Shown here: positions 12,397 to 51,346 of the stretch, one piece after another | Layout of the letters: every line of letters starts with the position of its first letter | Position numbering within the stretch: position 1 is the first letter of the stretch | Assembly: GCA_037833965.1 (NCBI GenBank) | Contig: AP031355.1 | Location: forward strand, 9,945,501-10,009,500 | Direction of reading: 5' to 3' | DNA length: 64,000 nt | Source of the DNA: Marchantia polymorpha subsp. ruderalis | Taxonomy: Eukaryota; Streptophyta; Marchantiopsida; Marchantiales; Marchantiaceae | Translations under genes and position numbers: made by a program | The notes under the pieces: generated by a model | Told to the model about the DNA's origin: nothing | The model's database searches: none | Seen by the model: the letters and a program-made list of their open reading frames with translations, nothing else

Positions 12397-12433
12397 CTCG
12401 TTGGAAAGAGCTTGACGCGCTGATTCCAACGAG
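12397..12433. promoter_or_regulatory. Inverted-repeat box in U3
   Basis: CTCGTTGGAA and TTCCAACGAG form perfect 10-bp arms around 17 bp. The same box is perfect at 45013-45049. Related forms occur in every LTR type of the window (near 24519, 32525, 36838, 41450, 47805 and 59515). The function is unknown; it could be a protein-binding site. Confidence 0.6.
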
Positions 12434-13417: not shown

Positions 13418-16272
13418 ATGACGAGACTGGCCGATTGCGGATGCTGCCGCTTCGACTACCACAGAACGGGCTGCGCGCTTTTGAGGAGCGGCTGATAGCA
13501 AGAAAGCTCGATTTCTTGCTATGGGGATGGAACTACATCTGTGTGGATATGGTGCGCAAGTGGCTAGAGCCACAGGGTCCACCTTCGCGCGGATTGCGTC
13601 CGCATGTCGATCGGTGGACGGTCCAAGATTGGGCGCAGGCATTGGGGAGATGTGCCGGCATGCCAGGGCACCTCCTCTTCCATAGTGAGAGCGTCAAGGT
13701 GACCAAGCAGGAAGAGGCGCAATTTGTGGAGCTGTTCAAGAAGGGGAAGTCTACCAAGAATGGGTACAAGACCCGCGATTACAAGGATCGATTCCGCCGA
13801 ACTTTGGCTACGGCGCTGCTGCAATTACTGCAGCCACACCGCGCCTGCTACATCACATTGTGGCAGGTCTCTTTTGTGGAGTGCATCATCGAGGAAACTT
13901 CAATTCACTGGGCGAGCATCCTGCACAGGGTGATGCGACAGCACGCTTTTGAGGAGAAGGGGGGAACTCTAAATCATCTCTCTCCTTTCCTCATCAATTT
14001 TTATCGACAGCGAAATTGTTTGACCACGGCGGAGCTGGCTCGTTTTCCGCCGTTGTCCATCGACCATCCCGGGAGGTATGTGCGGGAGAATGAGGTCGAC
14101 ACTGATGCAGAGGAGTCGCCGACTTCTACTCCGTCAAGGCGGAGGGACGAAGGGAGAAATACTCCTGTAGCAAGAGTGCCGCGGAAGTGGCGATGGAGAG
14201 AGGAGTTTGAAGAGGAGCAGCATCAAGAACCCACTGCTCCCATTCGACCGCGGCCGTTGTACGAATCGTACAGCCGGCCGAAGCAGAAGGCGCGCAGGCT
14301 GGTGTTACCAGTCAGCAGCGCGGACACGGCGACGATTGCGACGGAGAAAGGAAGTGCGTCGCCAGAGAAGAACGAGGGAGCGCGGACGTCTGCAGGAGCA
14401 ACGGACCACGCTGCACCCTCGACGGACGAGAGGCCGCCTACGGGCCAAGGGCCTCCGGAGTTACCACGTGCGTGGCGGACAGGTGTTCCGCCTGCGCACA
14501 GGCGAGCCTCGACGGACGGGCGAGCCTCGACGGACAGACGACCACAAGCGGACGTGGACCTACGCCTACGCGTGGGAAGAAGTAGTCCGCCTGTGCACAG
14601 GTCACCTCCACACGTGCCGCCTGTGCACAGGCAGGAATCACCCCCGTTCCAACGTAGGAAGGGGAAGGAGCCGGCGGAAGAACCGCCTACGGGACACAGG
14701 CCTTCGGGGCCAGACCCTCCGGCGCACAACGCGCCGCGATTTGCGCCTTCGGCGCCAGGGCCTTCGGGCCGAGGAGATGCGAGCAGGGAGCGTGCGGAGG
14801 CCGCACCATCGGCGGGTAATCCACCGGTAGAAGCGCCTTCGGCGGTAGGGCCTACGGGCCAAAGGACATCGGGCGAGCGGCCCCCGGCTATATCGCCTTT
14901 GGCGATAGACGCCTTCGGCGCTGCGCCTGCGGCGGACAAGGCGCCGGCATTTGCGCCTGTGCACAGGCCGGACACAGCCCTCGCGCAAGACCGATCGAGG
15001 GAGCAGCACCTTACAGAGGAGCGGACTAACTGTCCGCGGGACGAAATTTCGGTGCGCGATGCGCAATCAAACCCCGCGCATACTCCCTCCGCTCGATCGC
15101 CTTCGGCGGCGGACGTCGGCGGCAGAGAGGATACGATTGAAGACCGACCAGCGGGCGACGAGGATGTAGCACGGCCACATTCACCCACCGCCTTAGACAT
15201 TTTGGCGAAGAGCAGCGAGGCTGCAGCGGTGCCTTCGCAGGCAGCACACGTCGACGACGTGTAGCCCCACTCGGGACAGTCGCCAACGCAATCAATGGCG
15301 ACTGAAATCCTCAACTCGGATGATGACGACGGTGGCTTCACCGAAGCAATGTCGGGAGCAGGGGATACCGAGGAGGAGGAGGAGGAAATTGTTGGAGCGC
15401 CGGCGACGGCGCTCTCTAAGCAGGTGATTCCGTTGCTGAAGTACTTGGATCGCAAATTCGATAAATACGCCGATCCACTTCAGCCGGGATCTTACATCGA
15501 ATTAGTGCGCAGGCGGACTCGCACTAAAGTCCACACTAGCAAGCTACTAGCTAGGGTGGACCAGGAGTAGAGGGAATTGAAGGAGAGGCATGCCTGTTTA
15601 TGGGGGCAGTACAACCTTGAGAGGAAATCGCACGCCCTCGACAGGATGCGGAAGGATAGAGTGGAAGAGCTCACCAGGGATGTGCTGCAGACCACGTAGG
15701 ATTTGATGTCTGAGAAAACTCAGAATCAGATTCTCTCTGAAGAGCTCGTGCGACAGACGCGTTTGTTGGCGGAGTGTCAGCTCGCACGGCAGGCGGATGA
15801 GGATTTAATCCGCAGGCTACATTCAGAATGTGGCGAATTGAGAGCGCAGCGTGCGGAGGCCGAATCGCAGTTAGTGGTAATTGAAGAGGATCGCAGGCGA
15901 GAGGCCGATCGCACGAAGGAGGAGACGGCGAGGCGTGTCGCCCACTGTCTCAAGGGCTACGCCCACTGGGAAGTGGCGGCGCAGGAGAAACTCACACTGC
16001 GTGAGTTTGAACTTCGCGCAGCAGGGTTGTTGGCAGGCGACAGCAGGAGTCGGCGGAAGGTAGCGAAGAAGCTCAACGCTTTTCTGTCGAAGGCGCGGGA
16101 TACCATGTCCACCCTCGAGGTGGAGGTGTCCGCGGCGTTGCAGCGGTTGGGACTGCGCAGTCGAGCGGAAGACTGGCAGGGTAGGGAGTTAGTGCGCGGC
16201 AATCCGTCGCGCAGGAGACGTAGCACTGGTTCCGCGGAGTGTAGTGTAGCGTGGTTCCGTGCAGGCGCATAG
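13418..16272 (+). pseudogene. U3 ORF, decayed copy in B1
   Basis: It is homologous over its full length to the open frame on the minus strand at 28683-31373. A one-base loss just after the ATG (13418) shifts the first codons, after which the frame is open to 15262. In-frame stops lie at 15262 (TAG where siblings have CAG), 15568 and near 15698, and the last segment runs to 16272. It keeps the LDFLLWGWN block, GRCAG, RDYKDRFRR, GGTLNHLSP, the acidic patch and the coiled coil. It also keeps the 38 codons that are missing from the 28683-31373 copy. An upstream in-frame-looking ATG (MTFDR, 13166) is kept in other B copies but not in family A, so that part is probably leader. Confidence 0.85.
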
Positions 16273-16308
16273 TGTAGTGCAGTGTAGTGCTAGTTAGGAT
16301 TTAGAAGG

Positions 16309-16316
16309 TATAAAAT
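16309..16316 (+). promoter_or_regulatory. LTR TATA box (B1)
   Basis: TATAAAAT lies just downstream of the U3 ORF and 12 bp before a short hairpin (CCAGGC-GTTTT-GCCTAGG). It is at the same place in all A and B LTRs. It sets the U3/R boundary at about 16340, so the U3 ORF lies upstream of the LTR promoter. Confidence 0.8.
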
Positions 16317-17286
16317 AGTTCCAGGCGTTTTGCCTAGGGTTCTTTCCCAAATTCAGAAGTGCAGATCAGGAAGTCATTTTCTCTGCGTGTTTGTGTCCTT
16401 CGTTCTGTCACCACGCAAGGGGAGCTACAACTTGGCGTTCCGCATTTTGTAAGCTGAAGGCCTTCGGCCGAATGTTCAGAGCTAGTACATTGGTTAGAGA
16501 CTTGAGTAGTTCGGATCTACACCTGCGGGTGATTGCCGATGCTCAGAGCCAGTGACTACTTAGATACTTGAATAGTTTCGCCCCTACACCTTCGAGTGTT
16601 TGTTCCTGATTGTACTCCTCCGGGATTTTTCCCCTGAATGCCAAAGTGAAGTTTTGTTACTTCGTGTAAGCCTTGGTTGTAAATTCAGGTTACGATGCAG
16701 CAGGTGCCTTCAAGGTAACCCCTGTGGTATTTCTGGGAATGACAAGTGCCTGAGAATTCAAACTCTTCAATAGACTGTTGTTGTGTTACTGGAACGTTTC
16801 TCAGTGAGTCCTTCAGTGCGGACCTGTGTTCTCTGCGCGTTTTGTGAGTTGAAAGTGTTGTTCACCGCGTCTGAGTGACTTCGATCCGAAGTAGGCAGTC
16901 CAAACCAGGTTTCCTACGCTAGCAGCAAGCTAGCGGAAGTGTTGTAAAAGCCGGAGTTGGGAGTCACTACCCGCAGCTTCGCTGAGTGTACTCTCGAGAG
17001 ACTTTCCCCCTGAAATCTTGAGTAGAGGTCCTAACGGATCTCTGGGTTGTGTTTCTGTAGTTTCAGGTGTGTGTGTGTGTGTGTTACGCTGCACTGTGCG
17101 ACCTCCGAGTGCGCTCCGAGTGGACACTTGCAGTATTTCTGGGAGTGACAGTCGCCTGAGAATTCAAACTCCTCAATAGTCTGTTAAACGTGACACTTTG
17201 TACCCTGTGTGTTCCTCTGTCCCTGTGGGTTCGACCTTTCTACCACTATATTGCAGTTTTAGCCTTTAGTGGGTTATTACACTGAC

Positions 17287-24105: not shown

Positions 24106-25482
24106 TGTGGTAACACACTTTTTGTTTTTTTTGCAGAATTTAAACAATTTTAGAAAACTAGTACCGAAGCAGTGTTTGTAGTTAGAAAAGGGTACGTTAA
24201 ATAGAGTGGATTGATGAGATCGTCACGAGGTCACGAAGAATCGCGTAGTCGGATGTACCAACGCCAATGTCTTCGGCGCCTTCGGCAAAAGCTCCTTTTC
24301 TGAGGTGTCTCTACTCACGCGCTTCCAACGTTTAAGGAAGCTACGCTTCCGGCGCAGACACCTCAGGAGGAGGTTTTGCTAAAGACGTCAGAAGAACGGC
24401 CCGGACCTCTGAAGGCTTCCGACCATGAGTGCGCCTTCGGCGATGCGCCGCTAGCGCGGGAAGGGAAAACTTTCATAACGATCAGAATACACGGTAGATC
24501 CAGTTGGTTGAAGTTGCATTAGAAAGAGCTCGGGACGCTCGTTCTAACGAGCCCAAGAGCGTCGGAGATGGATCAGGGACGAAGAAGTTATGAGCGTCGG
24601 AAAACTCGAAGCCGGACATGCGCCGTTCGCGCTAGGGTTCACAGCCGGAAAGGACTCCCGTACGCCCTCGGCGATGCGCCTTCGGCGGAATCACGCGCTC
24701 ATGGGAGGAAATCAACTCGGAGTCGGAAGCGCCTTTGGCGGCTGCGCAACGGAAGAAACGCGCCGACCGGATGTACGCCTCCGACGTGGCGCTGATGGCT
24801 GGATGCGCTGGCATGATTTGCGCTGGTATGATTTACGCCGGCGGGATATGCGCCGTCAGCAATGGACGAGGCATAAAGGACAAAATAAGCGGTACGAATA
24901 CGCGCCGGCTTAATTCGCACCGACTGGATGTGCGCCTCCAGCAAGGCGCCGATGGATAAGGAACACGCCAGCGGCGACACGCCTCCGATGATGGACGGGT
25001 TAGGGAAAGACAACATAGCCGACGTATACCCTGCGGCGGACTCGAGTCCGGAAGACGGCGGCGGCGGGAGAATTCAACATTCACGCATGCGAATGCGCGC
25101 AGTGCGGAGACGTGAATTCGCGCATGCAAAGGGCGAACCGTTAGGCCGTATAGCCGGCTGCGTACGTAGTAACCAGTAAGAACGTTGGACGCTCTTGAAT
25201 TCGGAGAAGAAAAGACTGCGCTCCAGTCTCATTCTCTCATTCTTGATTTTGCGATTTCCAGCTTCCAAGATTACGCGCAAGGGCGGAGAGACCTGCAGTG
25301 AGAGGAGAGAGTGCGGAGACGAGTTGCGCAAGGATCTTGACAGACCTTGGAGAGAATTGCGAGTAGCGAACTTGAGCGTGAGCGAAGAGAGAGTGAGCAG
25401 TCAGTGCTTGAGCGGCCGACGCGCAGTGGCGATTGTGAGAGAGCGAGCGAAAGGGAGAACGTTTGTGTGTGCAGGTAACGCA

Positions 25483-26998
25483 ATGTCGAAGGTTCCCCAG
25501 CTGCGAGTGTCTCCACTCAGGGTGCCGCAGATCGGTCTACGCGCATTTCAAGATGTGCTGCTGGGGCTGAAGCTCGATTTCCTCCTGTGGAGGTGGAACT
25601 GGACATGTCCGGAGATGGTGCGCGAGTATCTGCAGGAGAGACACAAGCCCTCACGCGGATTCCGTCCACATCCAGAAAGGTGGGACATTTGTGACTGGGC
25701 GCAGGTGTTGGGCAGGTGTGCCGGCGAGGAAGGGTATCTCCTCTTCGAGGCCGATAGCGTGAAGGTGTCCCAGGAGGAAGAAATCTCCTACAATGAGCTC
25801 TTCAAAGTTGCCAGGCATCCCAAGAACGGTTTCCGGACACGGGATTACAAAGATCGATTGCGGAGAAATGTCGCGACTGCATTACTGCAGATATTGCAGC
25901 CGACCAAGACCGCTTACATGCATGGTTGGCAAGTAGGATTTGTGGAGCTAGTGTTGTCAGGAGCTCCAGTGCATTGGGCACGACTCCTGTGGAAGGTGAC
26001 GCGCCAACATGCGCAAGAAGAGAGAGGAGGAACCCTCAATCATCTTTCGCCTTACCTGATTGTGTTTTATCGGGCGATGGGATGTTTGACAAATTCAGAG
26101 CGGACACGGTTTCCACTGCTGACACGGATCTATCCAGGTAGATACTCACGGGAGGCCGAAGTAGACACGGATCCGGATGAGGAACCTGCCAGTCCGCCTC
26201 CGGCTCCGGCCCCAGCAAGAGCAGCAGAAGAACGTCGAAGTGAGCGCATTCCGCGAAAGCGGAAGTGGGATGAGAGACCTGAGGACAGGCAGCCGGAAGT
26301 GCTAGCTGCGCCGACTCGTGGTCGGCCCACCCACGAGCCTCACAGTCGACCAAAACAGAGGGCACGCAAAATGCCAACTAGTACTGAGGAGACCAGGCGT
26401 ACTCCGGTCCGGCGGAATCCCACGCAGGAGGAGATAATCGCGCAGATTCTAGGGAAGTCGACAAATACCTCTGCGCAGAAGGCACCAATGCCTTCGGAAG
26501 GAGATGGACGGACTGACAGTCGGCCGACTACGAGTCGGGCGACTAAAGGTTGACAAGCGGAAGGAAGGCCAACTGAGCGGCGCGTTAAACCGGACAGCAG
26601 GCCAGAAGCAAAAGAGAGTTTGGCTGACGAGCCAACAACCCTCAGAAAGTCGTCTTCGGCGGAAGGCACTTCTGGGAAAACGCCGCCAGCAAGCAGGCCA
26701 AGTGGAGTCAAGTCGCGCAGGGTGTATCCGACTCCCAGTCGGACAACTCCTAGTCGGCCTACTGCGAGTCGGTCAACAGAGAGTCGGCCGGATTCGCCGA
26801 CTGCGAGACGGACAGGGCCGGCGACCAGTGTGCGGACGCCTTCGGCAGACGCACCTTCAGCGAAGACACCTTCCGCGCAGATTGCGCCGGAAGGGCAGGC
26901 AGCAGAAGCGGGCGGTGCAAAGGTGACAAGAGTCACTACGGCGTCGACCCCTTCGGAAACCGAAGATCGAGCCGGAACAAGGGCTCAAGCAGTGGGAT
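25483..26998 (+). pseudogene. U3 ORF of family A, N-terminal part (copy A1)
   Basis: The ATG at 25483 starts a frame open to a TGA at 26551 (CGA in the sister copy at 49818 region). It continues in frame after the stop until the B insertion. The first about 215 residues match the family B protein at roughly half of positions by eye: PQIGLRAFQ, LDFLLW, WAQVLGRCAG, FRTRDYKDRLRR, GGTLNHLSP. The linker that follows differs in sequence but is likewise rich in Pro, Arg, Ser and Thr and is built from short palindromic repeats of the type AGTCGGCCGACT. Frame is also open upstream to 25195, but that part is not shared with family B and is probably leader. The C-terminal half is at 37132-38060. Confidence 0.85.
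26994..26998. repeat. Target-site duplication, GGGAT (left)
   Basis: GGGAT at 26994-26998 recurs at 37127-37131. The uninterrupted family A copy has a single GGGAT at the same place (near 50271). Confidence 0.95.
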
Positions 26999-27595
26999 TG
27001 TAATAACCCACTAAAGGCTAAAACTGCAATATAGTGGTAGAAAGGTCGAACCCACAGGGACAGAGGAACACACAGGGTACAAAGTGTCACGTTTTAACAG
27101 ACTATTGAGGAGTTTGAATTCTCAGGCAACTGTCACTCCTAGAAATACTGCAAGTGTCCACTCGGAGCGCACTCGGAGGTCGCACAGTGCAGCGTAACAC
27201 ACACACACACACGCACCTGAAACTACAGAAACACAACCCAGAGATCCGTTAGGACCTCTACTTCAGGATTTCAGGGGGAAAGTCTCTCAAGAGTACACTC
27301 AGCGAAGCTTCGGGTAGTGACTTCCAACTCCGGCTTTTACAACGCTTCCACTAGCTTGCTGCTAGCGTAGGAAACCCGGTTTGGACTGCCTACTTCGGAT
27401 CGAAGTCACTCAAACGCGGTGAACAACACTCTCAACTCACAAAACGCGCAGAGAACACAGGTCCGCACTGAAGGACTCACTGAGAAACATTCCAGTAACA
27501 CAACAACAGTCTATTGAAGAGTTTGAATTCTTAGGCACTTGTCATTCCCAGAAATACTACAGGGGTTACCCTCAAGGCACCTGCTGCAGCGTAAC
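26999..27595 (-). repeat. Tandem duplicate of the LTR end (597 bp)
   Basis: 26999-27595 repeats 27596-28192 with roughly ten differences. Both begin TGTAATAACCCACT (the LTR end read backwards) and close at CTGCAGCGTAAC. Either the LTR end was duplicated in place, or these are the ends of two LTRs joined by recombination. Confidence 0.9.
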
Positions 27596-28558
27596 TGTAA
27601 TAACCCACTAAAGGCTAAAACTGCAATATAGTGGTAGAAAGGTCGAACCCACAGGGACAGAGGAACACACAGGGTACAAAGTGTCACGTTTTAACAGACT
27701 ATTGAGGAGTTTGAATTCTCAGGCGACTGTCACTCCCAGAAATACTGCAAGTGTCCACTCGGAGCGCACTCGGAGGTCGCACAGTGCAGCGTAACACACA
27801 CACACACACACCTGAAACTACAGAAACACAACCCAGAGATCCGTTAGGACCTCTACTTCAAGATTTCAGGGGGAAAGTCTCTCACGAGCACACTCGGCAA
27901 AGCTGCGGGCAGTGACTTCCAACTCCGGCTTTTACAACACTTCCACTAGCTTGCTGCCAGTGTAGGAAACCCGGTTTGGACTGCCTACTTCGGATCGAAG
28001 TCACTCATACGCGGTGAACAACACTCTCAACTCACAAAACGCGCAGAGAACACAGGTCCGCACTGAAGGACTCACTGAGAAACATTCCAGTAACACAACA
28101 ACAGTCTATTGAAGAGTTTGAATTCTCAGGCACTTGTCATTCCCAGAAATACTACAGGGGTTACCCTCAAGGCACCTGCTGCAGCGTAACCTGAATTTAC
28201 AACCAAGGCTTACACGAAGTAGCAAAACTTCACTTTGGCATTCAGGGGAAAAATCCCAAGGAGTACAATCAGAAAGAAACACTCGAAGGTGTAGGGGCGA
28301 AACTGTTCAAGTATCTAACTAGTCACTGGCTCTGAGCATCGGCAGTCACCCGCAGGTGCAGATCCGAACTACTCAAGTCTCTAACCAATGTACTAGCTCT
28401 GAACATTCGGCCGAAGGCCTTCAGCTACAAAATGCGGAACGCTAAGTTGTAACTCCTCGTGCGTGGTGACAGAACTCAAGGACACAAACACGCAAAGGAA
28501 ATGGGTTCCTGATCTGCACTTCTGATGGGAAAGAACCCCAGGCAAAACGCCTGGAACT

Positions 28559-28566
28559 ATTTTATA
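28559..28566 (-). promoter_or_regulatory. LTR TATA box (B2) with adjacent hairpin
   Basis: On the minus strand TATAAAAT is followed after about 4 bp by CCAGGC-GTTTT-GCCTGG (28554-28538), a perfect 6-bp stem. In family A and in B5 the stem is CAAGGC/GCCTTG, also perfect, so one base pair has changed on both sides. Confidence 0.75.
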
Positions 28567-28682
28567 CCTTCTAAGTCCTACCTAGCACTACACTGTACTA
28601 CGCTACACGCCTGCACGGAACCACGCTACACTACACTCCGCGGAACCTGTACTACGTCTCCTCCGCGGCCGACTGCCGCGCA

Positions 28683-31373
28683 CTAACTCCCTACCCTGCT
28701 TTCTTCCGATCGACTGCGCAGTCCCAACCGCTGCAACGCCGCGGACACCTCCCCCTCGAGGGCGGACATGGTATCCTGTGCCTTCACTTCCCAGTGGGCG
28801 TAGCCCTTGAGACAGTGGGCGACTCGCCTCGCCGTCTCCACCTTCGTGCGATCCGCCTCCTTCCTGCGATCCTCTTCAATCATCACTAATTGCGATTCGG
28901 CTTCAGCACGTTGCGCTCTCAATTCGCCACACTCTGACTGCAACCTGCGGATTAACTCTTCATCCGCCTGCCGTGCGAGCTGACATTGTTCCAACAACCG
29001 CGTCTGTCGCACGAGCTCCTCTGACAAAATCCGATTCTGGGCCTGCTCAGAGTTGAGTGCTTCCTTGACCTTCACCTGCTCCTTGGTGAGCTCGCCCAGT
29101 TTCTCATCCTTCATCTTCTCGGAGTGCTTGTAGAACTTCTGATTAAGCTTGTACTGTCCCCACAAGCACTCATGCTTCTCCTTCAAGTCCCTCAACTCCT
29201 GGTCCACTCTAGCTAATAGCTTGCTGGTGTGGACTTTAGTGCGAGTCCGCCTGCGCACTAATTCGATGTAAGATCCCGGCTGGAGTGGGTCGGCGTATTT
29301 ATCGACCTTGCGATCCAAGTACCGCAGCAACGGAATCACCTGCTCAGAGAGCGCCGCCGCCGGCGCTCCAACAATTTCCTCCTCCTCCTCCTCGGTGTCT
29401 TCTGCTCCTGACATTTCTTCCGTGGAGCCTCCGTCGTCATCATCCGAGTGGAGAATTTCCGTCGCCATTGATTGCGTCGGCGACTGCCCCGAGTGGGGCT
29501 GCACGTCCTCGACGTGTGCTGCCTGCGAAGGCACGGCTGCAGCCTCGCTGCTCGTCGCCAAAATGTCTAAGGCGGAAGGCGAATGTACCCGAGCGGCATC
29601 CCCGTCGTTCGCTGGTTGATTGCCTACCGCATTCTCTCTGTCGCCGTCGTCCGCCGCAGAAGGCGATCGAGCGGAGGGTGGCTGCGCGGGGTTGGATTGC
29701 GCATCGCGCATCGAGATTTCATCCCGCGGACAGTCACTCCGCTCCATCGTCTGCTGCTCCCTTGATCGGTCCGTGGGGGCTGTGCCCGGCCCGTGCGCAG
29801 GCGCATTTGCCGGCGCCTTGTCCGCCGCAGGCGTAGCGCCGCGGACATCTATCGCCGAAGGCGACATGGCCGGGGGCCGCACGCCTGATGTTCCTTGGCC
29901 TATAGGCCCTACCGCCGAAGGCGCATCTATCGGCGGACTTCCCGCCGATGGTGCGGCCTCCGCACGCTCTCTGCTCGTATCTCCTCGGCTCGAAGGCCCT
30001 GGCGCCGAAGGCGCAAATTGCGGCGCGTGGTGCGCCGGAGGGTCTGGCCCCGAGGGCCGGTGTCTCGTAGGCAGTTCTTCCGCCGGCTCCTTCCCCTTCC
30101 TCCGTTGGAACGGGGGTGATTCTTGCCTGTGCACAGGCGGCACGTGTGGAGGTGTTCTGTGCACAGGCGACCTGTGCACAGGTGAGCGCCTGTGCACAGG
30201 CGGACTGCTCCTTCCCACGCGTAAGCGTAGATCCACGTCCACTTGTGTTCGCCGATCCGCGGAGGCTCGTCCGTCCGCGGAGGTTCGCCTGTGCGCAAAC
30301 GGAACATCTGTCCGCATCGCACGTGGTAACTCCGGAGGCCCTTGGCCCGTAGGCGGCCTCTCTCCCGACGAGGTTGCAGCGTGGCCCGTCGCTCCTGCGG
30401 TCGTCCGCGCTTCCTCTCGCCTCTCTGGCGACGCACTTCCTATCTCCGTCGCAATCGTCGCCGTGTCCGCACTGTCAGCTGGTAACACCAATCTGCGTGC
30501 CTTCTGCTTTGGCCGGCTGTATGGCTCGCACAGCGGCCGCGGTCGAATGGGAGCAGAGGGTTCTTGATGCTGCTCCTCTTCAGACTCTTCCCTCCATCGC
30601 CGCTTCCGCGGCACTCGCGCTGCAGGAGTGTGTTTCCCTTCGTCCCTCCGTCTTGATGGGGTAGAAGTCGGTGACTCCTCCGCATCAGTGTCGACCTCGT
30701 TCTCCCGCACATACTTCCCGGGATGGTCGATGGACAATGGCGGAAAATGTTCAAGCTCCGCCGCTGTCAAACAATTCCGCTGTCGATAAAAATTGATGAG
30801 GAAAGGAGAAAGATGGTTTAGAGTTCCCCCCTTCTCCTCAAACGCGTGCTGTCGCATCACCCTGTGCAGGATGCTCGCCCAGTGAATTGGAGTTCCCTCG
30901 ATGACGCACTCCACAAAAGAGACCTGCCACAATGTGATGTAGCAGGCGCGGTGCGGCTGCAGTAATTGCATCAGCGCCGCGGACAGAGTCCGGCGAAATC
31001 GATCCTTGTAATCACGGGTCCTGTACCCATTCTTGGTAGACCTCCCGGTCTTGAACAGCTCCACAAATTGCGCCTCTTCTTGTTTGGTCACCTTGATGCT
31101 CTCACTGTCGAAAAGGAGATGCCCTGGCATGCCAGCACATCTTCCCAACGCCTGCGCCCAATCTTGGACTGTCCACCGATCAACATGCGGACGCAATCCG
31201 CGCGAGGGTGGTCCCTGTGGCTCAAGCCACTCGCGCACCATATTCGCACAGATGTAATTCCATCCCCATAGCAAGAAATCGAGCTTTCTTGCTATTAAGC
31301 GCTCTTCGAAAGCGCGCAGCCCGTTCTGCGGCAGGCGAAGTGGCACCATCCGCAATCTGCTCGGTCTCGTCAT
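28683..31373 (-). CDS. LTR-encoded (U3) ORF protein, 896 codons, intact
   Basis: This is the only uninterrupted copy. Residues 1-215 form a conserved domain with LDFLLWGWN (31-39), GRCAG (77-81), RDYKDRFRR (120-128), a HWASILHRV segment (164-172) and GGTLNHLSP (182-190). Residues about 230-635 are a Pro/Arg/Ser/Ala-rich linker, probably disordered, full of PVHR and PSA-type repeats that come from DNA palindromes. Residues 643-667 are acidic, 682-689 read LLRYLDRK, 715-850 are predicted coiled coil, and HCLKGYAHWEV (853-863) precedes the end. Compared with B1 and B5 it lacks 38 codons after WEV. I chose the Met at 31373 because families A, B and D all align from there; the frame is open for 84 more codons upstream. 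The function is unknown. The layout recalls the extra ORFs of Tat-lineage elements and, distantly, plant mobile-type domains, but I could not confirm any relation. No signal peptide or membrane segment is seen. Confidence 0.85.
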   Translation of the reverse strand: MTRPSRLRMVPLRLPQNGLRAFEERLIARKLDFLLWGWNYICANMVREWLEPQGPPSRGLRPHVDRWTVQDWAQALGRCAGMPGHLLFDSESIKVTKQEEAQFVELFKTGRSTKNGYRTRDYKDRFRRTLSAALMQLLQPHRACYITLWQVSFVECVIEGTPIHWASILHRVMRQHAFEEKGGTLNHLSPFLINFYRQRNCLTAAELEHFPPLSIDHPGKYVRENEVDTDAEESPTSTPSRRRDEGKHTPAARVPRKRRWREESEEEQHQEPSAPIRPRPLCEPYSRPKQKARRLVLPADSADTATIATEIGSASPERREEARTTAGATGHAATSSGERPPTGQGPPELPRAMRTDVPFAHRRTSADGRASADRRTQVDVDLRLRVGRSSPPVHRRSPVHRSPVHRTPPHVPPVHRQESPPFQRRKGKEPAEELPTRHRPSGPDPPAHHAPQFAPSAPGPSSRGDTSRERAEAAPSAGSPPIDAPSAVGPIGQGTSGVRPPAMSPSAIDVRGATPAADKAPANAPAHGPGTAPTDRSREQQTMERSDCPRDEISMRDAQSNPAQPPSARSPSAADDGDRENAVGNQPANDGDAARVHSPSALDILATSSEAAAVPSQAAHVEDVQPHSGQSPTQSMATEILHSDDDDGGSTEEMSGAEDTEEEEEEIVGAPAAALSEQVIPLLRYLDRKVDKYADPLQPGSYIELVRRRTRTKVHTSKLLARVDQELRDLKEKHECLWGQYKLNQKFYKHSEKMKDEKLGELTKEQVKVKEALNSEQAQNRILSEELVRQTRLLEQCQLARQADEELIRRLQSECGELRAQRAEAESQLVMIEEDRRKEADRTKVETARRVAHCLKGYAHWEVKAQDTMSALEGEVSAALQRLGLRSRSEESRVGS
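30110..30350. repeat. Cluster of CGCCTGTGCACAGGCG palindromes
   Basis: Within 250 bp, full and partial copies of a 16-bp perfect palindrome recur (exact at 30187-30202, others near 30125, 30157 and 30171), interspersed with GCCTTCGGC-type repeats nearby. The same palindromes occur in every B LTR (for example 14490, 14589, 14619, 45232 and 59769). Confidence 0.85.
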
Positions 31374-32871
31374 TGCGTTCCTGGGGTTCGCTCGCCCGCT
31401 CATTCTACTTCCGCACTGTCCGCGTTTCTTTCTCTCTCGGCAAACTCTAATTGCTCTCAATTCCAAATCACGCGCACTCACTTCTCCCTCAATCAACAAG
31501 AAATCTCCTGTGCGACGACGTCGAGAATATCCCGCAGCCAGCAGATGGATGCGCGCAGCGCGCACAAGAGATTGGAATCGCGAATTCAAGAATGGGACGT
31601 TCTCCGCCGCCCGGTCGAAGGTCATGGTCGGCTCTTGGTCGTGAAGAACGTCTCACTTGATGGCCGCGCCGGCTGTACGCTGGAACGGTCTTCGCTCTCA
31701 CGCGCGGCTTCACGCTCCGCCGTCGTCGATTAAACTCTCACGCTCGAATTGGCGGATTTGAACTCCGCGAGCGTGTCGCCCTGCGGACATGGGGGCGTAG
31801 CGCCGAAGGCGAGTTTTCCGCCTTGCGCGGTACACTTGTTCGTACCGCCCCTCGGCCAATCTCCCGCTGCCTTGACGCGTGTGTCCGCATGTCGGACAAA
31901 AATTCAACTCCTGCCTGTGCGCAGGCAGGGGCCTCGGCGGATTCTCCGCCGGCGCGGAACTTGAACATCCTCCTGTGCACAGGCGTTCGCCTGTGCGCAG
32001 GCGAATTCCGTCCGCGGCGCTGCGCTGGCGCGGAAGGCGTTGACCGTGGTCAGCCGTCTCCGTCCAGTCCGTCCGTTCCTTGTCTCTCCGTCGGCGCTTC
32101 CGCCGCCGCAACTCCGTCCGTCCAAGAGCGCATCCACCCGTGCCGTCCGCACGGTCCGTACCTATTGGATTACTCTGGCGGCTCTTCCGACGTACGCGGC
32201 GCTGCGCTGGCGCGGAAGGCGTCGTACACTTTCTACCTCACAAGGCGCATTTCTAGGGCCCAAGGCGGATTTTCCGCCGACGCCGAAGTGCCTGTGCACA
32301 GGCGAACGCCTGCGCGTAGGCGGACTTCGCGCCTTCCCTAACCCTACTTCGCCTGTGCCCAGGCGAACGCCTTCGTCCGCGCATCGGACAAAACTTGATT
32401 CCCCCTTCCGCGTAGGCGGAATTCGCGCCGGTGGCGAACTCCTTCCGCCGTAGGCGACCGCCTCCGTTTCTTCCAGTAGCGATAACTCCCTAAGTCCTCG
32501 TCCGTTCCAAGCGTTCTTGGGCTCGTTAGAATCAGCGCGTCGAGCTCTTTCCAACGGGACCCTAACTTGGTCAAGGCGCCCGAGGGTTTACCTAATTACG
32601 AGGGTTTCCCTACAGCCGCGGACGCAACCTCCGAAGGCGGGTTTTGCGCCTTGCGCCGTAGAGATCCTAACTGCGGAGCTCGCAGGGAGGGTGGTGCCTG
32701 TCCTTGCTGCGGCACCCCAAATCCCAGATTCTACAAGATCCCTCGAGAATCCCCGCGATCTTCCGGATTCACTCTGTTTTGATGTACCGAAGGCTATTTA
32801 CAATGCTGCCAGGGTACAGTTTTCCAAAAATGTTTTAATTTCCTCAAAATTGCCAAAAGTGGGGTACCACA

Positions 32872-32886
32872 TGCCCCCCTCCTCAA
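32872..32886 (-). other. Polypurine tract of element B2
   Basis: TTGAGGAGGGGGGCA on the minus strand ends exactly where the LTR begins (TGTGGTACC). This is the plus-strand primer site used in reverse transcription. It fixes the U3 boundary and shows that everything up to the TATA, including the U3 ORF, is U3. Confidence 0.92.
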
Positions 32887-32908
32887 TTGTGAGCGCCCAC
32901 GCGAACAC

Positions 32909-35749
32909 TCACATGTGGTATTTCTTCAACCGCCACCCGTTCACTCGGGTGCCTAACAAATCGCCGGCCAGGTCCGCAAGTTGGATGGATCCATTCGGGA
33001 AGACTTCGACAACCCTGTAAGGTCCCATCCACCTTAGGTGCAGTTTGCCTGGGAATCTGGCATGCCTGCTGTCGTAGAGCAATGCCAAATCACCCGCCTG
33101 CAGGAGTACCGGTTTGATCTTTTTATCGTATCTCTCCTTTCGGCGGAGCTGGATTTTCCTGGTGCGATCTTCGGCGTCTCTTCTCCTCTCATCCAGCAGC
33201 GTGACTTCCTGTAACTTGTAGAGCTGACTCTCCTCTGCGCCCATCCTCTGCAAATCCAACGTTCGTTGGGTGGGTACTTCAAATTCGATCGGGAGGATCG
33301 GGTGTTGCCCATACACCAGAAAGTATGGTGTCTGTTTGGTCGTGATCGTCTCAGCTGTGCGGTACGCCCATAGGGCGGCTGCTAGCTTCGTATCCCAGTC
33401 GTGAGCGTGATTCACCGTGACCTTGAGTAGTATTTTACACAGCAGACCATTGGACTTCTCCGTCAGTCCATTTGCCTTGGGATTGTATGGAGTAGTCTTC
33501 CGGTGCTTGATGTGGAAATACCGTGTCAGATCTTCGATGATCTGATTCAGAAAATGCGTGCCCCGGTCGCTGACTAGCTCTAAGGGACATCCGTAGCGTG
33601 TGATGATCGACTCAAACAAGAATGCTGCCACTGTGGCAGCATCATCCCTTCTGGTGGCCCGGGCCTCTACCATTTTGGTGGCGTAGTCCGTTGCTACCAG
33701 AATGTAGCGCCTTCGTGTACTTCTAGTCACTGGTTGTATTGGCCCTACAAAGTCAATACCCCACTTTTCGAAAGGTGCTAGAGGCATGATGGGAGTCAGG
33801 GGCCAGCGTGTTGTAGGCGTCGGTCTCCCCGTCCTCTGGCAACTGTCGCACTTGCGGATGTAATCTAGAACATCCTTAAACATGGTCGGCCACCAATACC
33901 CCGCATTTAGGATTTTTGTGACCGTGTTCCTGGTGGCATAGTGTCCACCCGCCTCCTCTGTATGCATCGCACTCACTATTCTTGGTACCTCTGATTCCTC
34001 CAGGCATCTGCATAAGCGCTCATCTGCCATCTTCTTGAACAAAACCCCCTGCTGGAGTTGGTACGGACCTGCCTTATGAATAAAGACAGTTCGCTGTTCC
34101 AAATCCATGCCTTCGGGACACTGGAGGGTTAGCAGATATCGATACAGGTCGGCATAGCGGGACTCATGTCCTGCAGACAAATGAAATAACTCTTCATCTG
34201 GAAAATCGTCCACCAATTCCTCCTCTGTCGGCTGGGTCCATAGTCGGGACAAGTAATCCGCATTTTCGTGGTGCACCCCTTTCCTGGTCTGGACTGTGTA
34301 GGTGAACTCTTGTAGTAACAATACCCACCTGGCGATTCGACCGGATAGGTCGGCTTTCTTGACTAGGTGTTGCAATGCGTAGTGGTCCACATGGAACACA
34401 AACTCGTAGCAGATTAGGTAGTGACGGAACTTTTTACAGGAGTACACCATCCCCAACGCTTCTCTCTCCGTCGTGGTGTACTTCCGCTCTGCTAGAGACA
34501 GCTGTCGGCTCGCGAAGTAGATCGGGTAGTCCTTTTTGTTGTCATCCTTTTGACTCAGTACTACACCGATGGCGAATGCCGAGGTGTCAACGTAAACATG
34601 GAATGGTCGATTCCAGTCTGGACTCCTTAGTACGGGAGCAGTCGTGAGTTTCGCTTTCAGAGCCTCAAATGCTGACTGCTGGTTCGCACCCCAAGCATAA
34701 GGCTCGTCCTTCTTCAACAACTTGGTCAGATCCGCCGCCAGTATTGCATACATGTGTATGAATCTTCGGTAGTAGCCCACATGACCCAGGAATGCTCGCA
34801 GCTCTCTTAGATTCGTGGGTGGCTCAAGCTCGAGTATAACCTTGACCTTCTCGACGTCCACCGCAATGCCGTCTGCCGAGACCCGATGACCCAACAAGAT
34901 CCCACTAGTCATAAAGAAAAAGCACTTCTCGGGATGCAGTGATAAACTGCTCTCTCTACATTTATCGAAGGTCTGCTTCAAGTGACTTAGGTGTTCAGAA
35001 CGCTTCCCAAAGACACAGAAGTCATCTATGAATATTTCCAGGAACTTCCTCAGTTGTTCCTGAAAGATATTGGTCATCATCCGTTGAAAGGTGGCAGGCG
35101 CGTTGCACAGACCGAAGGGCATCTTGTGGTATGCGTAAGTTCCCCAGTCGGTTGTGAACGTAGTTTTATCCTTGTCCTGTTCACGGATAGACACCTGATT
35201 GTAACCTGAGAACCCATCCAGGAAGCTATAACATTCATGTCCTGCGACATGGTCTAGAATGGCATCCGTGAATGGTAACGGGTGATGATCCTTGCGTGTT
35301 GCTGCATTCAACTTCCGGAAATCCTGACACACTCGTATCTTACCCGTCAACTTCTTGGGTACGATAACAATCGGCGACACCCACTCGCTGCTGAGCACAG
35401 GGTAAATAATTCCAGCGCTCAAGTACTTATCTATCTCCTCTTTAACTAGCAAGGAGTATTTTGGATTGAGGCGATACTGGCGCTGTTGTATGGGTACTGA
35501 GTCGTCCAGTAAATCGATACGGTGTTCCCCATACCGTGCAGGTATCCCCTTCATGTCTTCGATCTTCCAGGCAAAGACGTCGACATAATGGCTAAGGAAT
35601 GCCTGTACTTTCCTTAGCTCGTCTCCTCTCACTGCGCTTGATACCTTCAAGCACTTGCCGGGACTGAGTTGTACTTCGTGACAGTCACTAGGGTCGACAA
35701 TGCCCTCAGTGTGACTCGTCTCACTCCTTCCCAGTCCCACAGTTAATTG
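32909..35749 (-). CDS. pol: Pol: RT, RNase H and integrase of element B2
   Basis: The frame is open for 943 codons counted from a GTG at 35740, and it is contiguous in frame with the protease ORF upstream except for one UAG. RT has LDGFSGY (174-180) and the active-site FIDD (237-240). RNase H has D385, E426 and D452. Integrase has H593, H600, C631 and C634, then the catalytic D663, D725 and E761 with 35 residues between the last two. The C-terminus has a GPY motif and ends NGWRLKKYHM, with no chromodomain, which suits the Tat/Athila side of Ty3/gypsy. There is no AUG near the 5' end, so expression needs read-through of the UAG. It is intact, but the element lacks a PBS and gag. Confidence 0.93.
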   Translation of the reverse strand, partial: QLTVGLGRSETSHTEGIVDPSDCHEVQLSPGKCLKVSSAVRGDELRKVQAFLSHYVDVFAWKIEDMKGIPARYGEHRIDLLDDSVPIQQRQYRLNPKYSLLVKEEIDKYLSAGIIYPVLSSEWVSPIVIVPKKLTGKIRVCQDFRKLNAATRKDHHPLPFTDAILDHVAGHECYSFLDGFSGYNQVSIREQDKDKTTFTTDWGTYAYHKMPFGLCNAPATFQRMMTNIFQEQLRKFLEIFIDDFCVFGKRSEHLSHLKQTFDKCRESSLSLHPEKCFFFMTSGILLGHRVSADGIAVDVEKVKVILELEPPTNLRELRAFLGHVGYYRRFIHMYAILAADLTKLLKKDEPYAWGANQQSAFEALKAKLTTAPVLRSPDWNRPFHVYVDTSAFAIGVVLSQKDDNKKDYPIYFASRQLSLAERKYTTTEREALGMVYSCKKFRHYLICYEFVFHVDHYALQHLVKKADLSGRIARWVLLLQEFTYTVQTRKGVHHENADYLSRLWTQPTEEELVDDFPDEELFHLSAGHESRYADLYRYLLTLQCPEGMDLEQRTVFIHKAGPYQLQQGVLFKKMADERLCRCLEESEVPRIVSAMHTEEAGGHYATRNTVTKILNAGYWWPTMFKDVLDYIRKCDSCQRTGRPTPTTRWPLTPIMPLAPFEKWGIDFVGPIQPVTRSTRRRYILVATDYATKMVEARATRRDDAATVAAFLFESIITRYGCPLELVSDRGTHFLNQIIEDLTRYFHIKHRKTTPYNPKANGLTEKSNGLLCKILLKVTVNHAHDWDTKLAAALWAYRTAETITTKQTPYFLVYGQHPILPIEFEVPTQRTLDLQRMGAEESQLYKLQEVTLLDERRRDAEDRTRKIQLRRKERYDKKIKPVLLQAGDLALLYDSRHARFPGKLHLRWMGPYRVVEVFPNGSIQLADLAGDLLGTRVNGWRLKKYHM

Positions 35750-35752
35750 CTA
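35744..35752 (-). promoter_or_regulatory. Leaky-stop context UAG-CAA-UUA between PR and RT
   Basis: Minus strand TAG (35752-35750) is followed by CAA TTA, and the reading frame is open on both sides for hundreds of codons. UAG-CAR-YYA is the known tobamovirus-type read-through context. The same arrangement is found at 55162-55170 (CAA CTA) and 61957-61965 (CAA TTA). Confidence 0.8.
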
Positions 35753-36642
35753 TTTGTCTTCCGGCTGAATAGCTTCCGGCTCTTCTTCTTCTCCCACCGA
35801 ACAGCAGGCAACGAATCCCACGAAGTAATCGGATTCGGTACCACTGGAATCCGATCGCGCGGTCGACTCACTGTCCTCGCCCGATGTGTAACCTGCACTT
35901 GTCGATGGGGTCTCTCCTTCGTGCCTGACCCTATTCCAGGGCACCGTAATGGTTTTGGTCGGTTCCGAAGGATGAGGAAACTTAAGGCGATGTCTTCGCC
36001 AATCACATCTGACTTGTGCACCATATAGCCATGGTCGCCCGAGCAGAACGTCATAGCCCTGCTTCATCATCGGTTGAAGGATGATATACGTCAACCGAAA
36101 GTCCGCACCCCCGATGGTTGTCTTGACATTGCGCAGCATACCTGCTGGCATTCTCCGCGTCTGATCCGCTAATTTCAACACACGCTTCGAGGGTTCGTAT
36201 TGACTGAACCCCAAGGCTCTCGCTGTATCCTCCGTCATTATGTTGACTCCTGATCCAGAGTCGATTGGCACTCTGCGTACACAACACCCTGCTATTTCCA
36301 CATCGATCTCGGGTGGCCCTTGGTCTTCGCTCTCCACTTGATATACTTGAGAGGATATGGATGCGCGCGGCTTCCGCGGATGCCGTAGCGAAAGCATCAA
36401 CATTCTCCGATACGTCTTATTGTCCTCCAAGAGCTGCTTGAACGTGATGTTCACTTTTCGACTCCCGAGATCTTCAACCAAGTCATAGTGGGCGCGTTGG
36501 GTCGCCGGGGTCGGCGACGCTCTGAGAGGTTCCACAGTGGTTGCCAACTTCGCTCCCAGGGAGGATGTCAAGTCTGGCCGTGGTGGGTCCTTTTGCGTGC
36601 GGATCGCTTCCTTCAACAGGTTGGTTACCTCGTTGCGGATAT
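35750..36642 (-). CDS. Gag C-terminus and protease of element B2 (5' truncated)
   Basis: The frame covers the end of the gag-PR polyprotein. It has RPDLTSSLGAKL, then VNITFKQLLEDNKTYRRML, an aspartic protease core with DSGSGVNIM, and a downstream GYDVLLGRPWL block, and ends EDK-UAG. It matches 61057-61959 almost residue for residue. At 36642/36643 it is fused to LTR sequence, so the gag start, gag domain and zinc knuckles are lost. The protease motif is intact. No genuine start codon precedes it. Confidence 0.88.
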
Positions 36643-37126
36643 GCGGATCTCCCGCATTGCCGAAGGCGTTGACCCGAAGGCGTTGACCGAAGGCGTCTAC
36701 CGCCCAAGGCGCATCTTCCGGCGGTTCTTCCGCCGAAGGCGTACCGCCAAAGTCGCTCTACCGCCGAAGGCCCCCCATCAGTAACTTCCGACACTCATAA
36801 CTCAGTGATCTCTCATCTGTTTCACAAGTTCTTGAGCTCGTTAGAACCAGCGCGTTGAGCTCTTTCCAACGAGACCCTAAGCAACTCAAAGCGTTACGAA
36901 TTGAGAAAGTTATGAGTGATCTACCGCCGAGGGTGCTCGAAGCGGATCCTGCAGCATGAACCGCCCGTTCCGTCCCAAGCGTCCCACTGTGGCCTAAGCC
37001 CAAAACCCCTTGACTGTCCTCGATCCTCTGGTTTCGCGTACCGATTACTATTTACAGCTACTGCCGCGGTACTTACTATTCAAAAATGTTTTAGTTCCGA
37101 TAAAAAACAAAAAGTGGGTTACCACA
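36643..37126 (-). mobile_element. LTR head of a third type (C), 484 bp
   Basis: It starts TGTGGTAACCCACTTTTTG at 37126 and carries the U3 inverted-repeat box near 36838-36880 and GCCTTCGGCGG motifs. It aligns with the A and B heads only at scattered conserved blocks (GTACC, GCAG, TGTAAATAG) and is clearly not the same LTR as the 3' LTR of this element (32871-27596). It is cut at the junction with gag. Confidence 0.85.
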
Positions 37127-39139
37127 GGGATCCCCCACTGCCCTGGATATTTTAGCAGGCAGTGGAGCAGCAGTCGCAGCGGAAGCTGCTGCGCGCCACA
37201 GTTCCAGGGAGTCGCCAAGGGATTCACTGGCGACTAAAATCCTCGAAACTGAGGATGAGACGAGCCCGGAAGAGCAGGAAGCGGATTTTGTGCGGAAAAC
37301 GCCAACAGGGGTGTTGTGCGAGCAGATAGTCCCTCTCCTGCGATATCTGGATCGCAAGACATCCAAGTACTCGGGTACTGGAAAACCGCAGTCTTATGTG
37401 GAGACTATCAAGCGAAGGACGAGGAGCAAGGTGGCCACTTGGGCCTCTAGGTGCCAAGTGTATGTGGAAAGGAACACCGCCCTCCGACAACACCTGGCGG
37501 TCACACAGAAGCTATACCAAGCCTTGCAGCAGTAGAGGGAGGATGCGGCGACGAAAAGCCAGGCGGAGGCCGAGCTAATACGGGCAAAGATCGAGTCAGA
37601 ATTGCAGGAAGAGCGGAGACAAAACCGCATCCTAGCAGCAGAGCTTGCGCGCCAGACGCGCGCCTTGGAAGAAAGTCAAAGAGCCCGCAAGGAGGATGAG
37701 GAGTTGTTGCGCAACTTGCAATCCGAGTGCTCGGATTTGAGGGCGCAGCGTGCGGAAGCAGAAATGTAGCTAGTAGAGGTGGAAGGCAGCTGCCGGGCGC
37801 GAGAAGAGTGGGCGACGCGGGTGACTCACTGCCTAAAAGGATACGCCCATTGGGAGGTGGCAGCTCAAGAGAGGATCACACTCAGGGAGTTCGAGCTTCG
37901 GGCGGCGGCATTGACGGAGGGTGACAGTTGGAGTCGGCGGCGAGTAGCGAGGAAATTAGAAACCTTCTTGTCGGGTGCGCGCGACACTATGGCGCACTTA
38001 GAGTCGGAAGTCACTGCAGCCCTCCGACGCCTGGGGTTGCGCAGCCGGTCGGAAGACTAGCAAGGTAGAGACAGCGAGCGGAGCAGTCCGGCGCGCAGGA
38101 GGCGCAGCACCGGATCCGCCGAGTGCAGTAGTATAGTTTGGTTTCGCGCAGATGTTGCGAGGAGTAGATAGGATAGCGTAGTGTTAGTTAGGACCTTTGA
38201 GGGTATAAAGTAGATCAAGGCGTTTTGCCTTGGGACTCTTCCAGTTTCGGAAGTGCAGATCAGGAACTCACTTTCTTCGCGTGTTTGTGCATTTTGGGTC
38301 CTGGCACCACGTAGAGAAGCTGCAGCATAGCGAAGTTACCGTATGTTGTAGTTGAAGGCCTTCGGCTGAATGTTCAGAGCTAGCACCCGGTTAGAGACTT
38401 GAGTAGTGTGGATCTGCACCTGCGGGTGATTTCTGATGCTCAGAGCCGGCTGCGAGTTAGATACTTGAACAGTTCCCCCTTACTCCTTCGAGTGACATAT
38501 CCTGATTGTACTCCTACGGGAAGTTTCCCTTGAATGCCAAAGTGAAGTTTTATTACTTCGTGTAAGCCTTGGTTTGCAATTCAGGTTGTGTGTGTGTTAC
38601 TGGATCGTGTCTCAGTTAAGTTCTCAGTCGGGTCTGCACTCCCTGCGTTTGGTGTGAGAGTCGAGGGTGACGTCCACGGCGTATGAAGAGGCTTCGTTCC
38701 GAAGTGGGAAGTCCAGTCCGGGTACCCTACGCTAGTTCCTGGCGGAAGGGCAATAAAAGCCGGAGTGGGAGTCACTACCTGCAGAACCTCTGAGTGAACT
38801 TTTGAGACACTTTCCTCCTGAAATCCGAAGCGGAGGTCCTGACCGACCTCCGAGTTGTGCTTTTGCCAGTTTCAGGTGTGTGTGTGTGTGTGTGTGTGTG
38901 TGTTGAGTGACTACGCTGTACTGTGCATCCTCCGAGCATCCTCCGAGTCGAGATCCTCCTCCGAGTCGTCCTCCGAGTCGAGCACTGCAGTATTTCTGGG
39001 AGTGACAGTCGCCTGAGAATTCAAACTCTACAAAAGTCTGTTAAACGTGACACTTTTTACTCTGTGTGTTGCCTCTGTCCCTGTGGGTTCGATCTTTTTA
39101 CCACCATACTACAGTTTTAGCCTTTGGTGGGTTATTACA
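37127..39139 (+). mobile_element. Solo LTR family A (copy A1), right part
   Basis: The GGGAT at 37127-37131 is the second duplication. The rest is collinear with 50276-52271 and ends TTATTACA before CAGGT (39140-39144). It contains the end of the U3 ORF, a TATA box (TATAAAGT, 38204), the CAAGGC-GTTTT-GCCTTG hairpin (38216-38232) and a long TG microsatellite in U5 (about 38876-38901). Confidence 0.93.
37132..38060 (+). pseudogene. U3 ORF of family A, C-terminal part (copy A1)
   Basis: This part has the conserved LDILAGSG start, an acidic stretch, LLRYLDRK, YVETIKRRTRSK, a coiled coil with LARQTRALEE, and HCLKGYAHWEV, ending LGLRSRSED at 38060. Stops at 37533 and 37767 are TAG where the sister copy has CAG. 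Confidence 0.85.
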
Positions 39140-51314: not shown

Positions 51315-51346
51315 GATAGCGTAGTGCTAGTTAGGACCTTTGAGGG

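What the first reader, a model, noticed from the sequence alone, without database searches (positions are those of the whole stretch)
28683..31373. A 896-codon ORF lies inside the U3 of the LTR, conserved across LTR families
The ORF lies between the LTR start (fixed by PPT at 32872-32886 and by TSDs at 12080/17282) and the LTR TATA box. It is present in every long LTR here: A1 and A2, B1, B2, B4, B5 and D. Families A, B and D have diverged in DNA and in linker sequence but keep the same N-terminal domain (roughly half identical by eye between A and B), acidic patch, LLRYLDRK motif, coiled coil and HCLKGYAHWEV motif, which argues for protein-level selection. In genomic RNA the ORF would be the 3'-most gene and would be duplicated into both LTRs, a layout best known from the sag gene in the MMTV LTR. 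Tat/Ogre-type plant elements have extra ORFs, but to my knowledge these are outside the LTR.
Basis: partly seen in the sequence, partly recalled or inferred. Interest (0 to 1): 0.92.

Follow-up and report, generated by a model that had tools for sequence, protein, structure and literature searches.

The report
Conserved protein gene inside retrotransposon LTR
An abundant family of jumping elements in a Marchantia-type liverwort genome carries a conserved gene for a protein of roughly 850 to 970 amino acids inside its long terminal repeats, where plant elements are expected to hold only control DNA, so the gene is copied along with the repeat.

Summary
The ORF is on the minus strand (28683-31373; open upstream to 31625), inside the LTR of a Ty3/gypsy element, between LTR start (32871) and TATA box (28566). 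LTR identity rests on target-site duplications of five insertions, a PPT, a PBS, gag after the LTR end, and genome counts: 784 PPT|LTR-start and 1,232 LTR-end|PBS matches, none with reversed controls. The 230-aa N-domain is under strong purifying selection: dN/dS 0.10-0.25 in all 73 pairs with dS above 0.3 (of 91 pairs from 14 chosen copies). Linker, upstream extension and C-terminus are looser. A basic NLS-like block is conserved. No Pfam or PDB relative was found. All named homologues are Marchantia polymorpha; whether the window is that species is not settled, so conservation is shown between families only. The surveys I read describe extra ORFs of plant LTR elements in the internal region, or do not state a place in the LTR. 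The closest layout is MMTV sag. I read it as an accessory protein gene in U3, probably nuclear and self-associating, made from the 3' end of the element RNA. Expression and function are untested. New variant of a known kind.

The parts
28683..31373 (-). U3 ORF of LTR A2, 896 codons from the conserved ATG; open frame extends upstream to the ATG at 31625
   Evidence: dN/dS
30684..31373 (-). N-terminal domain (230 aa): dN/dS 0.10-0.25 in all 73 pairs with dS above 0.3; no Pfam or PDB relative
30492..30611 (-). conserved basic NLS-like block PRKRRW ... RPKQKARR directly after the N-domain
   Evidence: nuclear role is inference
29454..30491 (-). P/S/A/G-rich linker, indel-rich between families, dN/dS 0.29-0.70 in 10 A-type pairs (approximate limits)
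29307..29333 (-). PLLRYLDRK motif, preceded by the acidic patch; present in the A and B proteins aligned and, as PLLKYL, in the distant relatives P0112 and P0072
28683..29306 (-). coiled-coil-like C-terminal region with HCLKGYAHWEV; A2 lacks a stretch that L039 has and has another C-terminal end
31374..31625 (-). upstream 84-codon extension of the A family, weakly constrained (dN/dS 0.50-0.55)
28560..28566 (-). TATA box of the LTR, downstream of the ORF; ORF is therefore in U3
   Evidence: same order in B copies L071 and L072
32872..32886 (-). polypurine tract next to the LTR start
   Evidence: 784 matches to PPT|LTR start in the genome at up to 2 mismatches
26999..32871 (-). LTR A2, with a 597-bp direct duplication of its 3' end (26999-27595 and 27596-28190)
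26999..37126 (-). whole insertion that holds A2: pol, PPT and LTR, TSD GGGAT at 26994-26998 and 37127-37131; most of the 5' LTR, PBS and gag are missing
32909..36757 (-). protease, reverse transcriptase, RNase H, integrase ORFs of the element
12085..17281 (+). solo LTR A1 with TSD CTGAC, carries a frame-shifted copy of the ORF (13166-16173)
24106..39139 (+). solo LTR B1 (TSD CAGGT), split by the insertion 26999-37126; ORF pieces 25483-26550 and 37131-38057
47396..52271 (+). LTR B2, followed by 22 nt, PBS and gag; carries a frame-shifted ORF copy
45902..47395 (+). ORF copy in LTR sequence A3, internally deleted and cut by the insertion of B2
55898..58963 (+). ORF copy in LTR sequence A4, frame-shifted

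Best explanation
It is an accessory protein gene that lies wholly inside the U3 part of the LTR of a Ty3/gypsy retrotransposon lineage. Shown: the place inside the LTR, the order LTR(ORF)-PBS-gag-pol-PPT-LTR(ORF), and purifying selection on the protein, strongest on the N-domain. Inferred: the copy in the 3' LTR is expressed from RNA that starts at the TATA box of the 5' LTR, most likely after splicing to a site near the ORF start, and each round of reverse transcription copies the gene into both LTRs. Inferred: the protein enters the nucleus by the basic block, pairs with itself by the C-terminal coiled coil, and uses the N-domain to bind a partner (chromatin, the element's DNA or RNA, or a host silencing factor), so as to help expression, nuclear entry or integration of the element.
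For: LTR status: TSDs of five insertions (A1 CTGAC, B1 CAGGT, host element GGGAT; L071 AAGAG, L073 GTTGC); PPT and PBS at the right ends; 784 and 1,232 junction matches genome-wide, none with the reversed control pattern; the two LTRs L039 and L040 encode an identical 1059-residue open frame. Selection, window copies only (not chosen by similarity): N-domain dN/dS 0.13 for A2-A1, 0.16 for A2-A4, 0.20 for A2-B1 with dS near saturation. With 14 copies: 0.10-0.25 in all 73 pairs with dS above 0.3. Counts reject neutrality in 6 of 6 N-domain pairs tested (p 1.6e-5 to 5.2e-23) and 4 of 4 C-terminal pairs (p 2.0e-3 to 1.2e-6). For A2-A1 the coding frame gives 0.13 and the complementary frame -2 gives 0.19, the other four frames 1.35-2.19. 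Of 34 N-domain matches that are not A-type, 33 have no gap against A2. Basic block, LLRYLDRK and coiled-coil-like region are conserved between families. No transmembrane stretch (maximum 19-residue hydropathy 1.24 in 3 proteins).
Against: No RNA or protein data were available; expression is not shown. No splice acceptor is conserved in all families: TGTGTGCAG|G stands before the ATG in 10 of 13 B-type rows shown, but not in L061, L065 or L050, and A2 has only CCCAG|G. Nuclear location, self-association and any binding are inferred from motifs only. The N-domain models are poor (mean pLDDT 43.5 and 45.1). Linker and upstream extension are only weakly constrained. Among close pairs (dS 0.3 or less) the N-domain ratio scatters from 0.04 to 0.76 (18 pairs). 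16 of the 69 N-domain matches contain a stop, and 1 of the 6 larger window copies is open. The fetched copies were ranked by protein similarity, which lowers dN/dS; the same holds for intactness (107 of 150 top-ranked copies open over at least 1000 codons).
Confidence: 0.55

Rival explanations
1. The ORF has its own promoter in the first 1.2-1.5 kb of U3 and uses the R/U5 poly(A) site of the same LTR, so that an LTR with an intact ORF, solo LTRs included, is a self-contained gene that acts in trans.
For: The ORF ends about 45-50 nt upstream of the TATA box in B copies L071 and L072, and 1.2-1.4 kb of LTR lie before it, room for a promoter. A-type LTR starts (3,348 at up to 1 mismatch) outnumber PPT|LTR junctions (784 at up to 2 mismatches). 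B-type solo LTR L071 has an 865-residue open frame.
Against: No TATA-like word (three spellings sought) was found in U3 upstream of the ORF in L039, L071 or L073; plant genes can lack one (recalled). No expression data.
Confidence: 0.25
2. The protein is a structural or envelope-like particle component rather than a nuclear regulator.
For: It is the 3'-most gene, near the position of env; extra sense ORFs after pol in plants are often called env-like (PMC7264820).
Against: No transmembrane stretch, no Pfam match, a conserved basic block.
Confidence: 0.12
3. The open frame is a by-product of GC-rich, repetitive LTR sequence, and conservation reflects DNA or RNA constraints.
For: The linker is low in complexity, and long frames are open on the other strand over it (315 residues at 29620-30567; 320 in L039). 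The complementary frame -2 of the N-domain also gives a low ratio (0.19).
Against: The low ratio follows the codon phase; the N-domain is nearly free of gaps while the linker has many; protein-level matches reach down to 24-40% identity.
Confidence: 0.02
4. The gene was captured from the host and is kept by the host for its own benefit, the LTRs being mere carriers.
For: Many Marchantia polymorpha gene models belong to the family, some very divergent, such as P0108, P0112 and P0072.
Against: The six larger window copies lie in LTR sequence, and the first look gave 8,013 loose candidates in the genome, of which 150 were scored, a repeat-like number. No single-copy host gene was identified, but no search was built to find one.
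Confidence: 0.06

Closest known systems
MMTV superantigen (sag) gene in the mouse mammary tumour virus LTR
   Same: A protein gene in the LTR, LTR unusually long for that reason; [quoted passage not shown]
   Different: Animal betaretrovirus with LTRs of about 1.3 kb; sag is a superantigen. Here a plant Ty3/gypsy element with LTRs of about 5 kb and a longer ORF; no sequence link was tested
Extra ORFs (aORF/eORF) of plant LTR retrotransposons: Ogre, Retand, Athila, SIRE, Grande
   Same: Additional long ORF in a plant LTR element, sense strand, after pol
   Different: The review describes them in the internal region (PMC7264820, parts 1 and 2 of 3); the main named domains are plant mobile domain, Transposase_28 and Athila ORF-1 (PMC6317226, passages, which do not say whether any ORF lay in an LTR). 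Here the ORF is inside the LTR and no Pfam domain is detected
[not shown]
   Same: Reported in both Marchantia genomes studied, no additional RNase H (PMC10508981, passages); the element here has RT, one RNase H region and integrase and no second RNase H or chromodomain hit in the ORFs scanned
   Different: I built no RT tree, so the placement is a lead only; the passages seen do not mention an LTR ORF
HIV/SIV nef (recalled)
   Same: An accessory gene that reaches into U3
   Different: nef only overlaps U3 and begins outside it; no relation tested

Membership tests
Ty3/gypsy LTR retrotransposon | pol with protease, RT, RNase H, then integrase | tested here: met
   Pfam hits in that order in 35750-36757 and 32909-35749
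Ty3/gypsy LTR retrotransposon | two LTRs, TG..CA ends, 5-bp TSD, PBS and PPT | tested here: met
   PBS lies 22 nt after the LTR end
[not shown]
   No second RNase H domain hit in the ORFs scanned; no tree made
Plant internal extra ORF families (plant mobile domain, Transposase_28, Athila ORF-1) | match to the Pfam domain | tested here: not met
   No Pfam family at E up to 1 for the full ORF; 14 N-domains at E up to 10 gave only DUF7175 at 0.093 in one
Plant internal extra ORF families (plant mobile domain, Transposase_28, Athila ORF-1) | ORF between LTR and gag or between pol and 3' LTR | tested here: not met
   ORF is inside the LTR
Transposase_32 (PF20167) | profile match | tested here: inconclusive
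   No match in the genome, but none of the 14 control genomes rang either; hmmscan of 14 N-domains gave none
LTR-encoded accessory gene, as in MMTV sag | ORF wholly within U3 | tested here: met
   between LTR start 32871 and TATA 28566; same in B copy L071
LTR-encoded accessory gene, as in MMTV sag | expression by splicing to a site before the ORF in the 3' LTR | not testable with these tools
   no RNA data; good-looking acceptors mainly in B-type copies
env-like gene | transmembrane segment | tested here: not met
   maximum 19-residue hydropathy 1.14-1.24 in 3 proteins

The most novel reading that the evidence does not exclude
LTRs of this lineage with an intact ORF, solo LTRs included, are self-contained genes for a trans-acting nuclear protein. 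Solo-LTR formation, normally the end of an element, would then turn elements into a large bank of helper genes that keeps the whole lineage active or that silences it.
Probability: 0.18. Interest if true: 0.88.

Novelty: new variant of a known kind. Interest (0 to 1): 0.68.

Why it matters
LTRs of plant retrotransposons are read as control DNA. A large selected gene inside U3 means that the 3' LTR is coding, that solo LTRs can carry genes, that LTR divergence dating counts sites under selection, and that masking LTRs can hide a large protein family. It makes the open question of what extra retrotransposon ORFs do testable in Marchantia, which is easily transformed and haploid (recalled).

Tried and rejected
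Chance ORF: rejected by the phase-specific dN/dS. Unit not an LTR: rejected by TSDs, PBS, PPT and genome counts. PF20167 in the genome: no hit, but no control rang. Conservation between species: I first took the M. polymorpha hits for another species. P0007 is identical to locus L043 over its first 215 residues, which speaks for the same or a very close species; the best place of P0059 in the whole genome is only 92% and holds a stop, and the assembly (241 Mb) is larger than the 223-226 Mb listed for M. polymorpha subspecies and near the 238 Mb listed under MPA, M. paleacea (PMC9985172, passages), which speak the other way. A further test with P0001 did not complete. The species is left open and no between-species claim is made. 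P0059 (integrase next to an N-domain piece) looked like a gene model across the junction; the genome shows a contiguous, degenerate copy, so it proves nothing about splicing. An upstream TATA in U3 was sought in 3 copies and not found. Literature: phrase searches gave 0 papers, 20 and 2, seen as listings; topic searches were seen only as the top of long lists (20 of 150, 15 of 1,914, 12 of 2,151, 15 of 26, 10 of 1,311). No listed title or abstract start describes a plant LTR with its own protein gene; the library lacks most subscription journals.
Full report
What is there. It runs from 31373 to 28683 (896 codons) and is open upstream to an ATG at 31625 (980 codons). It belongs to LTR A2, which begins at 32871 directly after a polypurine tract and whose TATA box lies at 28566-28560, downstream of the stop codon. 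The ORF is therefore in U3. The insertion that contains it is 26999-37126, bounded by the 5-bp duplication GGGAT, and sits inside another LTR, B1, which itself is a solo LTR with the duplication CAGGT. The insertion is internally deleted: it keeps protease, RT, RNase H and integrase, but lacks gag, the PBS and most of the 5' LTR. Its LTR carries a 597-bp duplication of the 3' end.

Is the unit an LTR? Yes. A1 (12085-17281) is a solo LTR with CTGAC on both sides. Two B-type solo LTRs elsewhere have AAGAG (L071) and GTTGC (L073) duplications. In another copy (L039, L040) the LTR end TTACA is followed by 22 nt and an 18-nt PBS-like sequence beginning TGGCGCC, then an ORF like the window's gag, which matches Retrotrans_gag; the next LTR follows an integrase frame and the polypurine tract; both LTRs encode an identical 1059-residue open frame. 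About 3 kb of that copy between the two stretches was not fetched. Genome-wide there are 784 matches to PPT|LTR start (up to 2 mismatches) and 1,232 to LTR end|22 nt|PBS (up to 3 mismatches), and none to the reversed controls. One example of the order on C3: ORF 3046129, PBS 3049996, integrase 3055207, PPT|LTR 3055794, ORF 3057316.

Is the ORF a gene? The N-domain (230 aa) was found over at least 200 aa in 69 places among the loci held and the window (7 shorter matches set aside): 35 A-type and 34 others; 68 of the 69 have no gap, 16 contain a stop. Nei-Gojobori dN/dS between window copies, which were not chosen by similarity, is 0.13 for A2-A1 (dS 0.31), 0.16 for A2-A4 (dS 0.51, codons 85-290) and 0.20 for A2-B1 (dS 1.8, near saturation). 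For 14 copies chosen by me, all 73 pairs with dS above 0.3 give 0.10-0.25; the 18 closer pairs scatter from 0.04 to 0.76. The fetched copies were ranked by protein similarity, which biases the ratio downwards. Counts reject neutrality in 6 of 6 N-domain pairs and 4 of 4 C-terminal pairs tested. For A2-A1 the coding frame gives 0.13 and the complementary frame -2 gives 0.19; the other four frames give 1.35-2.19. The linker gives 0.29-0.70 in 10 pairs, the C-terminal part 0.14-0.62 where dS is between 0.05 and 0.7, and the upstream codons of the A family 0.50-0.55 in 4 pairs. One near-identical pol pair gives 0.11. So the strongest constraint is on the N-domain, and an ATG at the place of 31373 is shared between families.

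What does the protein look like? N-domain, helical only in models of low confidence (mean pLDDT 43.5 and 45.1); a basic block PRKR(R/K)W ... RPKQ(K/R)AR; a P/S/A/G-rich linker (44-46% of residues in 3 proteins); an acidic patch and PLLRYLDRK; a coiled-coil-like C-terminal region with HCLKGYAHWEV. The coiled coil rests on a crude heptad count. No transmembrane stretch. No Pfam match, no PDB relative, no meaningful fold match.

Who has it? Three protein searches listed 6, 78 and 106 proteins at E cut-offs of 0.001, 0.1 and 1; every one with a name is Marchantia polymorpha, the rest come from unnamed contigs. The search reaches only relatives that share short exact words and have a similar length. 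P0007 equals locus L043 over its first 215 residues, which suggests the same or a very close species; P0059's best place is 92% and the assembly size points the other way. The species is open, and conservation is shown between element families only. Distant relatives such as P0112, P0118 and P0121 keep parts of the N-domain pattern and LLKYLD.

How does it work? Shown: constrained as a protein, inside U3, present in both LTRs. Inferred: made from the 3' LTR of the element RNA. In MMTV, sag RNA is spliced to an acceptor just upstream of the ORF in the 3' LTR (PMC3026287, passages). Here 10 of the 13 B-type rows shown have TGTGTGCAG|G shortly before the ATG, but L061, L065 and L050 have no such site. 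The basic block and coiled coil point to a nuclear, self-associating protein; the step that it helps (transcription, escape from silencing, nuclear entry or target choice) is open.

Verdict. The finding stands, with corrected boundaries. It is a new variant of a known kind: an extra retrotransposon gene, in a place for which I found no plant example, with a protein of no known family. The A-type LTR start occurs 3,348 times at up to 1 mismatch; how many of these LTRs carry an intact ORF was not counted.

Noticed in passing
52272-52293, and L039 6100-6121: 22 nt, nearly the same in A and B, lie between the LTR end (fixed by TSDs) and the PBS, and contain an inverted repeat (AAGAAG...CTTCTT in A). 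The survey PMC6317226 looked for a PBS 0-5 bp after the LTR. The DNA end made by reverse transcription would need long trimming before integration, or priming is unusual.
   Followed up: partly
genome C2, C3, C4, C8 (for example C4:7166685, 7177888, 7189093): Tandem arrays of LTR-internal units with a period of about 11.2 kb, as if by unequal exchange between LTRs or concatemer integration.
   Followed up: no
26999-27595 and 27596-28190: 597-bp direct duplication (97% identical) of the 3' end of LTR A2, within an insertion bounded by a perfect TSD.
   Followed up: partly
36640-37126: The 5' end of the A2 element starts like a B-type LTR (TGTGGTAACCCAC...), matches both A and B LTR starts only at 70-80%, and then joins pol: a remnant or recombinant 5' LTR.
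   Followed up: partly
6139-7109: Tandem array with a 61-bp period, not part of the finding.
   Followed up: no
42720-43735: Divergent N-domain fragment in two pieces, closer to B1 and to some M. polymorpha gene models than to A2.
   Followed up: no
proteins P0108, P0112, P0115, P0118, P0121, P0072: Very divergent branches of the family in Marchantia with a similar layout; whether these too lie in LTRs is unknown.
   Followed up: no
genome C1, near 2.47, 2.88 and 3.22 Mb: The small contig C1 (5.6 Mb, perhaps a sex chromosome) seems to hold large repeated segments: the same matches recur about three times at similar spacing.
   Followed up: no
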